From positions 1-21,459 of IMG/VR virus record IMGVR_UViG_3300037858_000044: 21,459 bases of DNA; one strand, written 5' to 3'. This document shows, in pieces, positions 1,867 to 7,521 of the stretch (position 1 is its first letter; every line of letters starts with the position of its first letter). The notes below the pieces were generated by a model. That model saw nothing but the letters and a program-made list of their open reading frames with translations, searched no databases and had not been told where the DNA came from. The DNA comes from a virus. The translations under genes and the position numbers were made by a program.

Positions 1867-1875
1867 TGGTATAAT
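1867..1875 (+). promoter_or_regulatory. Extended -10 promoter of cassette B
   Basis: TATAAT at 1870-1875 is a perfect sigma-70 type -10 box, preceded by TGG at 1867-1869, which makes the extended -10 motif TGnTATAAT. There is no good -35 box at 17 nt spacing. The start of transcription would be near 1882. The leader then has a small hairpin (TGCAC-GTCT-GTGCA, 1883-1896) followed by pentamer array 1. The promoter lies 27 bp from, and points away from, the tape measure start codon. Confidence 0.75.
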
Positions 1876-1901: not shown

Positions 1902-1976
1902 GGCTAGGTAAGGTCGGGCGCGGCGCGGTTCGGTATGGCCCGTTGCGTTGGGGCATGGCGTGACAAGGCAAGGTTT
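1902..1976 (+). repeat. Pentanucleotide (GGYNN) array 1, 15 units
   Basis: Units begin at 1902 and every fifth base to 1972 without a slip. Most start GGC or GGT (GGCTA, GGTAA, GGTCG, GGCGC, GGCGC, GGTTC, GGTAT, GGCCC); four central and late units are degenerate but stay in register (GTTGC, GTTGG, GACAA). The array ends GGCAA-GGTTT. It fills the 5' leader between the promoter at 1870 and the ribosome-binding site of the gene at 2005, so it would be transcribed and lie upstream of the start codon. Confidence 0.85.
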
Positions 1977-2004
1977 TTGACTTCACAAGGAAAGGCATTT
2001 GATT

Positions 2005-2592
2005 ATGGCAAACAACATGCTTACTGCTACTGTTACAATTGAGGGCACCCGCCCGCTTCTCTGGCATCATTTTGGCCCTGATGCGATGCCCCTGGAAAAA
2101 CAGGAGCGCACCGGCGTGGCGGGAAATGACCCCGAAGAGTGGCGCAAAACGGTACTGTTCAGCAATAAGACACGCCAGTTGTATGTGAAGCCCACGTATG
2201 TATTTGGTACAATCCGCGACGGGGCGAAACACACGCCGCGCAAGCGTGGCACCTTGCAGCCGTTTGTAGCCGCGACGCTTCAGGTTGCCGATAATCTTGT
2301 CTGGATTGATCGGTACTTGCCCGAAGAGCCGATCCCGCAAGACCCCGAAGAGCCGGTCTACCTGGACATAACCAGTGTGAAAAACCCCTCCACACGCGCC
2401 CGCAATGTGCGCTATCGCATCGCGGCAAGCCCTGGCTGGCAGGCGACGTTCACTATTGAATGGGACAAGACGGTTGTGAGCCGTGGCGAAATGGAATCCG
2501 CACTGAATGACGCAGGTAAGCTTGTGGGCATTGGCGACGGGCGCGCCATCGGGAATGGCCGGTTTGTTGTCAAGTCGTTTGACGTAGCGTGA
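2005..2592 (+). CDS. Phage protein of unknown function with N-terminal GTRPLLWHH motif
   Basis: This is a 195-aa protein that I cannot name. I recall phage and mobile-element hypothetical proteins with a similar N-terminal 'EGTRPLL-H' strand and a C-terminal G-G-D-R-G-GRF pattern; here they are VTIEGTRPLLWHH (about residues 11-23) and VGIGDGRAIGNGRFVV (about 174-189). The C-terminal glycine-rich GRF segment is loosely reminiscent of RAMP (Cas7/Cas5-like) RNA-binding folds, but that is only a resemblance. I chose the ATG at 2005: AAAGG at 1991-1995 gives 9 nt spacing. A TTG six bases earlier is too close to it. It is the first gene of cassette B, on the strand opposite to the structural operon, and is preceded by promoter and pentamer array 1. 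Confidence 0.85.
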   Translation: MANNMLTATVTIEGTRPLLWHHFGPDAMPLEKQERTGVAGNDPEEWRKTVLFSNKTRQLYVKPTYVFGTIRDGAKHTPRKRGTLQPFVAATLQVADNLVWIDRYLPEEPIPQDPEEPVYLDITSVKNPSTRARNVRYRIAASPGWQATFTIEWDKTVVSRGEMESALNDAGKLVGIGDGRAIGNGRFVVKSFDVA

Positions 2593-2605
2593 CGTTCCGG
2601 CCCTG

Positions 2606-2705
2606 GGTATGGCCTTAAACTGCCTAACTGGGTGTGGTAGGGCTTGGCACGGCCTGGCAAGGCTGGGCAGGGCTGGGCGCGGCCCGGCAAGGCAAGGCAA
2701 GGGAA
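2606..2705 (+). repeat. Pentanucleotide (GGYNN) array 2, about 20 registers
   Basis: Units start at 2606 (GGTAT, GGCCT), lapse for three units while keeping register, then run unbroken from 2631 (GGTGT, GGTAG, GGCTT, GGCAC, GGCCT, GGCAA, GGCTG, GGCAG, GGCTG, GGCGC, GGCCC) to GGCAA-GGCAA-GGCAA-GGGAA at 2686-2705. This is the cleanest array: 12 consecutive units beginning with GGC. It lies right after the stop codon of the 195-aa gene. I see no convincing separate promoter in front of it. Confidence 0.88.
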
Positions 2706-2708
2706 CCT

Positions 2709-2729
2709 GGGCACGTTTGCAAACTGCCC
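2709..2729 (+). other. Hairpin between arrays 2 and 3
   Basis: GGGCA at 2709-2713 pairs with TGCCC at 2725-2729 around a perfect inner palindrome TTTGCAAA (2716-2723). No T-run follows, so it is not an intrinsic terminator. It sits at the exit of array 2, in the only stretch of this intergenic region that is not built of pentamers. It could be an RNA structure or processing site, or a protein-binding palindrome in DNA. Confidence 0.45.
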
Positions 2730-2759
2730 ACACGACGCCCGTAGCGGCGACCATTCCAG

Positions 2760-2819
2760 GGCGGGGCAGGGCTGGGCGCGGCAGGGCGTGGCGCGGCTGG
2801 GCTAGGCAAGGCAAGGATA
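2760..2819 (+). repeat. Pentanucleotide (GGCNN) array 3, 12 units
   Basis: Units start at 2760 and every fifth base to 2815: GGCGG, GGCAG, GGCTG, GGCGC, GGCAG, GGCGT, GGCGC, GGCTG, GGCTA, GGCAA, GGCAA, GGATA. All but the last begin GGC. The register is shifted by one base from array 2, so the two are independent arrays separated by a hairpin-bearing spacer. The final units supply the AAGGA Shine-Dalgarno of the HNH gene, whose ATG is at 2825. Confidence 0.88.
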
Positions 2820-2824
2820 TTGCA

Positions 2825-3118
2825 ATGAGACGACGCAGGCAACCGAGAGAGCTATGGTGCATATCGCGCAAGGCCATACTTACCCGCGACGCATACCAAT
2901 GCGTGCGCTGCGGCGTGTCTGTCACCAGTAGCACGGCCAACATTGACCACATTGTGCCACTCTCGAAAGGCGGCACAAACAGCACCGACAATCTACGAAC
3001 GCTGTGCAGACCATGCCACGTGTTGCGGGCGCGACGTGACCACCAGGGTATGATCTGGAAAGCATTGCGCGATGGTATCATCCCCGCCAATTGGCGCGAA
3101 CTTGTCTGGGACGATTGA
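2825..3118 (+). CDS. Small HNH endonuclease
   Basis: This 97-aa protein is a compact HNH nuclease (beta-beta-alpha metal fold that nicks or cuts DNA). Cys26-x2-Cys29 (CVRC) and Cys61-x2-Cys64 (CRPC) form the structural zinc site. Asp41-His42 in IDHIVPLSKGG is the catalytic part, Asn56 is in TDNLRTL, and His65 follows the last cysteine. The first residues are strongly basic (MRRRRQ). The frame stays open upstream through arrays 2 and 3 to about 2609, but that extension would just read the repeats as Gly-Arg-Ala-rich peptide. AGGA seven bases before the ATG at 2825 supports the short form. HNH genes of this size occur in phages as homing endonucleases or packaging-associated nucleases. Its place far from the terminase, in a reversed cassette, favours a mobility role. 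Confidence 0.9.
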   Translation: MRRRRQPRELWCISRKAILTRDAYQCVRCGVSVTSSTANIDHIVPLSKGGTNSTDNLRTLCRPCHVLRARRDHQGMIWKALRDGIIPANWRELVWDD

Positions 3119-3124
3119 GCCTCG

Positions 3125-3133
3125 TGGTACAAT
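3125..3133 (+). promoter_or_regulatory. Extended -10 promoter before array 4
   Basis: TGG at 3125-3127 followed by TACAAT at 3128-3133 matches the extended -10 form TGnTAnAAT, with one departure from TATAAT. It starts 7 bp after the HNH stop codon. No good -35 box is seen at standard spacing. The predicted start near 3140 lies just before array 4. It resembles the cassette B promoter at 1867 and the cassette A promoter at 6813 (TGGTAT). Confidence 0.55.
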
Positions 3134-3143
3134 GCCCGTACAA

Positions 3144-3198
3144 GGCACGACACGACGTGGCGGGGTGTGGTATGGCTAGTCTGGGCAAGGCAGGGTTT
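3144..3198 (+). repeat. Pentanucleotide array 4, 11 units
   Basis: Units start at 3144 and every fifth base to 3194: GGCAC, GACAC, GACGT, GGCGG, GGTGT, GGTAT, GGCTA, GTCTG, GGCAA, GGCAG, GGTTT. It is more degenerate than arrays 2 and 3 but in perfect register. It shares GGTAT-GGC with arrays 1 and 2 and the GGCAA-GGCAR-GGNNN ending with all of them. Its last three units form the 5' arm of the terminator hairpin. Confidence 0.8.
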
Positions 3199-3215
3199 AT
3201 TCTCTGCCTTTTTTT
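3187..3215 (+). terminator. Rho-independent terminator of cassette B
   Basis: AAGGCAG (3187-3193) pairs with CTGCCTT (3204-3210). Two more pairs (G-U, G-C) extend the stem towards a TTTATT loop (3196-3201). The run of seven T at 3209-3215 follows. Read from the minus strand the hairpin is not followed by a T-run, so it should stop only plus-strand transcripts and let the late operon pass. Confidence 0.8.
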
Positions 3216-6864: not shown

Positions 6865-7305
6865 ATGCCGTACGTAGTTCGCAACACATTCAGCCCGCAA
6901 TATGATGTAACCCGGAACTGGAGCGCCTGGATTGGTGGGAATTGGGACAGCATCGAAAAAGCATATGAGGATATTGCGGATGATAATGGAGACCTGTTCC
7001 GACTCGCCGAACGCTACCCCGATCTCGATGAAGACGAGATTGTTGAGATGCTTCTGGAGAAAGATGCATATGATGTGCGATGGAATGAAGCATACCAGAA
7101 ATACCAGCACGTTCATCACGACGGTTTGTCGTGTTGGAAACTGGAAGCCGAGAGTGAAACTGAAGCCATAACAGAAGCTCAGAACGGCGTTTTTGAGTGG
7201 CATGGATTTGGTGAGAGCACCTGTGGCAACATCCGTCTGGTGCGTCATATCAAAGACAATCTGTATCTGTACGAATGCGACGACACAACCCCGGAGATTG
7301 AATAA
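6865..7305 (+). CDS. Very acidic protein of unknown function
   Basis: This 146-aa protein has 33 Asp/Glu and about 12 Lys/Arg, a net charge near -21. I recognise no family. It has an acidic middle (YPDLDEDEIVEMLLEKDAYD), many aromatic residues (several Trp and Tyr), and a C-terminal beta-rich part (GNIRLVRHIKDNLYLYECDD). The frame is open upstream, but the promoter -10 box overlaps the next upstream ATG, so the ATG at 6865 with AAAGG before it is the likely start. Acidic phage proteins of this size include DNA mimics such as Ocr and several defence inhibitors; that role here is only inferred. It forms a two-gene operon with the gene at 7321, 15 bp downstream. Confidence 0.8.
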   Translation: MPYVVRNTFSPQYDVTRNWSAWIGGNWDSIEKAYEDIADDNGDLFRLAERYPDLDEDEIVEMLLEKDAYDVRWNEAYQKYQHVHHDGLSCWKLEAESETEAITEAQNGVFEWHGFGESTCGNIRLVRHIKDNLYLYECDDTTPEIE

Positions 7306-7320
7306 ACGAATGGAGATGAA

Positions 7321-7521
7321 ATGACCAAACGAACCCACGGCGGGCGGCGCCCCAACCAGACAGGGCGCCCGCCCAGGCCAGAGGCGCGCTACACGCGCAA
7401 GACCATCACGCTGCCCCCTGACATTGCCGCAGCCATCAAAGAAGCGCAGCAGCCCGGTGAGAGCTTCAGCGAGTGTGTTGTTCGGTTGTGTCGGGCTGCA
7501 TTGCATGTCAAACAATCCTGA
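7321..7521 (+). CDS. Small ribbon-helix-helix-like DNA-binding protein
   Basis: This 66-aa protein has a basic, proline-rich N-terminus (TKRTHGGRRPNQTGRPPRPE) and then RKTITLPPDIAAAIKEAQQP-GESFSECVVRLCRAAL. That is the strand-helix-helix pattern of CopG/Arc type repressors. Residues T-I-T-L (about 29-32) would be the DNA-contacting strand. A GGAG Shine-Dalgarno lies 5 bases before the ATG. In cassette A it could repress the promoter at 6793 or act as antitoxin to the upstream protein; neither is shown. Its last 14 bp overlap the 3' end of the converging minus-strand spike gene. Confidence 0.75.
   Translation: MTKRTHGGRRPNQTGRPPRPEARYTRKTITLPPDIAAAIKEAQQPGESFSECVVRLCRAALHVKQS

What the first reader, a model, noticed from the sequence alone, without database searches (positions are those of the whole stretch)
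1902..3198. Four pentanucleotide (GGYNN) arrays placed before each gene and at the end of one reversed cassette
Seen directly: arrays at 1902-1976, 2606-2705, 2760-2819 and 3144-3198 keep a strict 5-nt register, each with its own phase (2, 1, 0 and 4 modulo 5). Units are mostly GGC or GGT plus two free bases. The arrays share polarity, an internal GGTAT-GGC (1932, 2606, 3169) and a common 3' end GGCAA-GGCAR-GGNNN. The units differ from one another, so this is not recent slippage; what is kept is the GG spacing. Known parallel: TRAP binds RNA with about 11 triplets spaced by 2-3 nt, a 5-nt period. Inference: the arrays may be RNA binding sites for a multimeric or filamentous protein, runs of two-layer G-quadruplex (GG-N3-GG), or recombination sites that allow the cassette to exchange genes. 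I know of no described element with this layout.
Basis: partly seen in the sequence, partly recalled or inferred. Interest (0 to 1): 0.88.

Follow-up and report, generated by a model that had tools for sequence, protein, structure and literature searches.

The report
Phage VIPR RNA-guide locus with nuclease
The five-letter GG arrays are guide RNAs of VIPR, a recently described phage weapon related to CRISPR in which a small protein carries a repeated RNA to matching DNA of rival phages; this copy sits beside a DNA-cutting enzyme gene and belongs to a known kind of system rather than a new one.

Summary
In detail: four GGYNN arrays, register kept and all on one strand, absent from the rest of the window and never matched by shuffles. 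The gene between arrays 1 and 2 (2005-2592) is a Vipr. Its family profile matches exactly one PDB sequence, "SUSP1 Vipr protein" (E 9.7e-9), and its model folds like Csm3/Cas7. Among 115 contigs chosen only for GGYNN arrays, 62 to 74 carry a vipr-like gene, against 0 of 89 controls. All 33 vipr relatives tested have arrays on the coding strand. The second gene is an HNH nuclease; it lies just downstream of vipr in 36 of 38 loci, partly in one more. This is an HNH-linked VIPR locus, probably used against competing phages. I found no DNA target for its guides, so target, cleavage and activity remain inferred. It is a new member of a known kind; whether the preprint's nuclease types include this HNH could not be checked.

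The parts
1867..1875 (+). extended -10 promoter-like motif TGGTATAAT, 27 nt before array 1
   Evidence: sequence and motif list; consensus match only, no -35 found by the scan
1902..1976 (+). array 1 (candidate vrRNA 1), 15 GGYNN units, three degenerate; NN = TA AA CG GC GC TC AT CC GC GG AT GT AA AA TT
2005..2592 (+). vipr gene, 195 aa, RAMP-fold Vipr protein (ATG at 2005; mechanical ORF from TTG 1999)
   Evidence: hhalign to SUSP1 protein 97.7%; PDB hit 36pp_D 'SUSP1 Vipr protein' E 9.7e-9; Csm3/Cas7 fold; phrog_4652
2631..2705 (+). array 2 (candidate vrRNA 2), 14 strict units to 2700; ragged extension back to 2606
2706..2758 (+). possible 3' tail of array 2: two hairpins in the centroid fold, not better than shuffles (z 0.69)
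2760..2819 (+). array 3 (candidate vrRNA 3), 11 strict units to 2814, running straight into the ribosome-binding region of the HNH gene
2825..3118 (+). HNH endonuclease, 97 aa, candidate vipr-accessory protein (vap)
   Evidence: PF01844 E 6.3e-13; HNH homologue beside vipr in 36 of 38 loci; catalytic residues invariant in 34 aligned
3125..3133 (+). extended -10 promoter-like motif TGGTACAAT before array 4
   Evidence: consensus match only
3144..3198 (+). array 4 (candidate vrRNA 4), 11 units, three degenerate
3187..3210 (+). intrinsic terminator built on the last units of array 4 (9-bp stem, T run)
   Evidence: fold z -4.1

Best explanation
The segment 1867-3210 is a VIPR locus carried as a reversed cassette between structural genes of a tailed phage. 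The four arrays encode guide RNAs (vrRNAs). Vipr subunits (2005-2592), which have a Cas7/Csm3-like RAMP fold, assemble along the vrRNA by holding each GGY; the free NN pairs are exposed and together pair with double-stranded DNA, by the published rule of one skipped target base per unit. Shown here: the arrays, the Vipr homology and fold, and the linkage of arrays, vipr and HNH across phage contigs and bacterial genomes. Taken from PMC13142463 for other VIPR types: RNA binding, one-nucleotide-skip DNA recognition, transcriptional repression and use against competing phages. Inferred: that the HNH protein is the accessory effector and cuts or nicks DNA bound by the guide complex, and that arrays 1 and 4 have their own promoters while arrays 2 and 3 are made from the vipr-hnh transcript. 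The confidence given is for the VIPR identity; for HNH-mediated cutting it is about 0.55.
For: Array statistics. Profile of 12 relatives against SUSP1 protein 28474-29061: hhalign 97.7%, E 1.3e-12, 27% identity over 166 columns. Only PDB sequence match: 36pp_D SUSP1 Vipr protein, E 9.7e-9 over profile positions 7-188. AlphaFold model (pLDDT 73) matches Csm3/Cas7 chains by Foldseek, E from 2e-6, and VIA-align Z up to 10.8. The same scan finds GGY arrays, two with the same tail, at the SUSP1 locus, a positive control. Contigs chosen by arrays alone carry vipr-like genes: 62 of 115 (74 with SUSP1 in the profile) against 0 of 89 controls. 33 of 33 vipr relatives show GGY arrays on the coding strand above shuffles and above the opposite strand. 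HNH homologue beside vipr in 36 of 38 loci plus one partial, from Chloroflexota, Bacillota, Acidobacteriota, Chlamydiae and others. vipr and HNH distances correlate, r 0.45, above all 2000 permutations. Literature: PMC13142463.
Against: No DNA target was found for any of the four guides in IMG/VR, nor for guide 1 in 82 genomes of the order of a Chloroflexales relative beyond its reversed control; a skip-rule comparison on fetched loci gave no excess for any skip length. A shared 3' tail is visible in some relatives (L139, L162) but not shown for the window's arrays; arrays 1 and 3 run almost directly into genes. No expression data.
Confidence: 0.95

Rival explanations
1. The cassette is VIPR, but the HNH gene is only a free-standing homing endonuclease that spreads the cassette and takes no part in guided DNA recognition.
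For: HNH homing genes are common in phages; the cassette lies reversed among structural genes; the HNH matches generic HNH families.
Against: Found just downstream of vipr in 36 of 38 loci across several bacterial phyla, including chromosomes, with invariant catalytic residues and co-varying distances. The preprint reports nuclease-type accessory genes in VIPR types III-V.
Confidence: 0.25
2. The arrays are cis-acting leader elements: RNA sites bound by a multimeric protein, TRAP-like, that control translation of the gene that follows.
For: Arrays 1 and 3 end shortly before start codons, and in several relatives the last units run into the HNH ribosome-binding region.
Against: In many relatives arrays follow the HNH gene or stand alone on the other strand kilobases away; NN pairs are hypervariable; array 4 lies before a terminator, not a gene; the associated protein is a RAMP and a homologue of SUSP1 Vipr.
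Confidence: 0.05
3. Low-complexity GC-rich DNA, translated repeats or recombination sites without RNA function.
For: Array ORFs are open on the + strand because of the repeat.
Against: Register is 5 nt, not 3, with different phases; shuffles never match; arrays are strand-specific and linked to vipr genes.
Confidence: 0.01

Closest known systems
VIPR systems (PMC13142463; Escherichia phage SUSP1, KT454805)
   Same: Vipr homologue along its whole length, tandem GGY/NN arrays of 9-16 units, minimal locus of vipr plus one accessory gene, phage-borne, arrays flanking the genes.
   Different: Accessory gene is a 97-aa HNH nuclease, not the SUSP1 gene next to vipr (28031-28471, about 146 aa, presumably vap1); some units relax the second G (GT/GA); an array sits between vipr and the accessory gene, and array 3 runs into the HNH start. 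The preprint's main text does not mention HNH.
Class 1 CRISPR-Cas backbone proteins (Csm3, Cmr4, type VII Cas7)
   Same: RAMP fold of the 195-aa protein; works like them in coating a guide RNA (inferred).
   Different: No CRISPR repeat-spacer array seen in the repeat search; guide has 5-nt GGY/NN units rather than a contiguous spacer.
TRAP (trp RNA-binding attenuation protein) sites
   Same: RNA triplets at about 5-nt spacing bound by a multimer (general knowledge).
   Different: Triplet GGY not (G/U)AG; the neighbouring protein is a RAMP; arrays differ in NN content and are not confined to one regulated gene.

Membership tests
VIPR | Vipr protein: small RAMP homologue | tested here: met
   hhalign 97.7% to SUSP1 protein; only PDB match is SUSP1 Vipr protein; Csm3/Cas7 fold
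VIPR | vrRNA of about 9-16 tandem GGY/NN repeats with hypervariable NN | tested here: met
   arrays 2 and 3 have 14 and 11 strict units; arrays 1 and 4 have 15 and 11 with three degenerate each
VIPR | invariable, structured 3' tail after the repeats | tested here: inconclusive
   array 2 hairpins no better than shuffles, array 4 ends in a terminator; shared tails visible in L139 and L162 and in SUSP1
VIPR | vipr-accessory gene (vap) in the locus | tested here: met
   HNH gene linked to vipr in 36 of 38 loci plus one partial; that it acts with Vipr is not tested
VIPR | targets matched by NN pairs with one skipped base | tested here: inconclusive
   no target found for the four guides; local comparison of skips 0-3 shows no excess
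VIPR | vrRNA expressed, bound by Vipr, represses target DNA | not testable with these tools
   needs RNA sequencing, pull-down and reporter assay
VIPR type (I-VII) assignment | Vipr phylogeny, array architecture and vap kind of a named type | not tested
   type data are in supplements that could not be opened; types III-V are said to carry nucleases or helicases
CRISPR-Cas class 1 | CRISPR array of identical repeats and spacers | tested here: not met
   repeat search shows only the GGY arrays as clustered direct repeats
TRAP sites | (G/U)AG triplets bound by TRAP | tested here: not met
   triplets are GGY; locus protein has a RAMP fold

The most novel reading that the evidence does not exclude
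A VIPR variant that destroys rather than only silences DNA: a phage-borne Vipr with its own HNH nuclease, in which guides are partly embedded in the leader of the nuclease mRNA, so that guide supply and nuclease synthesis are coupled, spread from Chloroflexota phages to Bacillus chromosomes and not described as such.
Probability: 0.2. Interest if true: 0.65.

Novelty: new member of a known kind. Interest (0 to 1): 0.4.

Why it matters
It places an uncultivated phage in the newly described VIPR group and shows that a tight vipr-HNH pair with GGY arrays spans several bacterial phyla. That gives a compact set of two proteins and short guides for testing whether a VIPR complex can direct DNA cutting, which bears on how CRISPR effectors arose. 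The array-first search also shows that GGYNN arrays alone find VIPR loci in metagenomes.

Tried and rejected
Targets under the one-base-skip rule: 8- to 9-unit patterns for all four guides in IMG/VR gave 1, 4, 21, 12 and 4 stretches, none extended convincingly beyond the core. Guide of L163 in 193 genomes of its family (one 2-mismatch hit, and two hits with the reversed control) and in IMG/VR: nothing. Guide 1 in 82 genomes of the order of a Chloroflexales relative: one 3-mismatch hit, against hits in four genomes for the reversed control. Skip 0-3 comparison of 246 guides on fetched loci (4.7 Mb counting both strands): mean mismatch 0.231-0.237 for all skips, and the set was biased by loci fetched with skip-1 patterns, so no conclusion. 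Guide 1 read as codons with a free third base gives Y[KN]RAAS[IM]PAG[IM]V, protein-like, but this is suggestion only. Rfam: no family in the region at its gathering score; hammerhead ribozymes, as in some VIPR arrays, not among the matches. Vipr in the phage collection by tblastn: no match at E 0.01. PADLOC: no family for Vipr.

Full report
What is there. The four arrays are real. A scan for GGY every 5 nt finds 1902-1976, 2631-2700, 2760-2814 and 3159-3198, all on the + strand and nowhere else in the window; 1000 dinucleotide-preserving shuffles of the region reach a net score of at most 5 where the observed scores are 9, 14, 11 and 6. Units vary in the two free bases while GGY is kept. Two small genes lie among the arrays: 2005-2592 (195 aa) and 2825-3118 (97 aa, HNH endonuclease, PF01844). 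The cassette is reversed relative to the surrounding structural genes (terminase and Mu F-like genes on the - strand; major head protein).

Not unique. In 115 of these, after five with simple repeats were set aside, the arrays have variable units like the window's; pooled over 409 arrays and 5036 units, position 1 is G 97%, position 2 G 96%, position 3 C 75% or T 22%, and positions 4 and 5 are mixed. The scan selected for GGY, so these figures describe the arrays rather than prove the motif.

Literature. A search for pentanucleotide repeats in phages returned PMC13142463, a preprint of April 2026 (version 2, June 2026) on VIPR systems. It describes a small RAMP protein, Vipr, and guide RNAs (vrRNAs) of 9-16 tandem GGY/NN repeats, whose NN pairs recognise double-stranded DNA with one skipped base per unit, used for transcriptional repression of competing phages, with seven types and accessory vap genes that in types III-V are predicted nucleases or helicases. 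Only this paper in the library holds the words VIPR and vrRNA.

Test of membership. Eleven viral relatives of the 195-aa protein were fetched and aligned. The profile matches the SUSP1 protein at 28474-29061 with 97.7% probability, 27% identity over 166 columns. Against all PDB sequences it matches exactly one, 36pp_D, 'SUSP1 Vipr protein', E 9.7e-9, over nearly the whole length. The predicted model (pLDDT 73, pTM 0.73) is closest to Csm3, Cmr4 and other Cas7-like chains: Foldseek E from 2e-6, VIA-align Z up to 10.8 with 154 residues at 4.1 A. The model is weak at 22-47 and 117-136. The protein also matches phrog_4652, of unknown function, over its whole length. As a positive control the array scan finds three GGY arrays at the SUSP1 locus, two of them with the same tail.

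Independent association. Contigs picked only for arrays were searched with a profile of 34 viprs: 62 of 115 carry a match, 74 of 115 when SUSP1 is added to the profile, and 0 of 89 control contigs. Weak matches near E 0.001 are less certain, and some stretches are too short to include the gene. In the other direction, each of 33 vipr relatives has a GGY array on the coding strand that exceeds its own shuffles and the opposite strand (these shuffles kept base composition only), including L151, whose units often relax the first G.

The HNH gene. An HNH homologue lies just downstream of vipr in all 12 phage loci, window included, and in 24 of 26 genome loci, with a partial one in L171; L173 holds only a vipr fragment. 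Hosts include Chloroflexales, Bacillus and relatives, Paenibacillus, Desulfosporosinus, Bryobacterales, Chlamydiae and Verrucomicrobia (several are metagenome bins, so host names are provisional). The HNH residues are invariant in 34 aligned sequences, and vipr and HNH distances correlate, r 0.45, above all 2000 permutations; shared ancestry of hosts could contribute to that. I read the HNH as the accessory gene; guided cutting is an inference.

Anatomy. Arrays 1 and 4 each follow an extended -10-like motif, TGGTATAATG at 1867 and TGGTACAATG at 3125; similar motifs also occur inside the genes, so this is weak evidence. Array 4 ends in an intrinsic terminator at 3187-3210 that uses its last units as the 5' arm. 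Array 3 runs into the start of the HNH gene, as do the arrays before HNH in L137, L139, L140, L141, L142, L143 and L144, while in the Bacillus-type loci arrays follow the HNH gene. Tails after the repeats are alike between arrays of L139 and of L162, but the window's own tails, the terminator apart, are not shown to be structured beyond chance.

Targets. None was found. Exact scans of IMG/VR with 8 or 9 units for each guide gave few stretches, none extending clearly past the core. Searches in genomes gave no more than their reversed controls. The scans demand exact cores and the collection may lack the target, so this neither supports nor refutes the skip rule here.

Verdict. This is a new member of VIPR, with an HNH partner. 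Whether that HNH type is already in the preprint's supplement could not be checked.

Noticed in passing
window 6868-7521 +: A second pair of small genes on the + strand among - strand structural genes (145 aa and 66 aa); no PHROG match for either.
   Followed up: partly
L136:1933-2017 -, L140:3631-3796 -, L141:3123-3207 -, L143:4633-4682 -: Extra GGY arrays on the opposite strand, about 1 to 4 kb from the vipr-HNH pair, so guides also occur outside the core locus.
   Followed up: no
L097, L039, L108, L066: Contigs with seven or more arrays each, apparently large guide collections in phage contigs.
   Followed up: no
L151:6579-6744 and L153:3549-3714: Two related Chloroflexales genomes share the same array, with units that often relax the first G (CGCAC, AGCGC).
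   Followed up: partly
window 2005-2592: phrog_4652, a family of unknown function, matches the Vipr protein over its whole length, so it may be a Vipr family.
   Followed up: partly
L136:3394-3501, L141:4810-4956: A second HNH-like match in the same contig, kilobases from the vipr-HNH pair.
   Followed up: no
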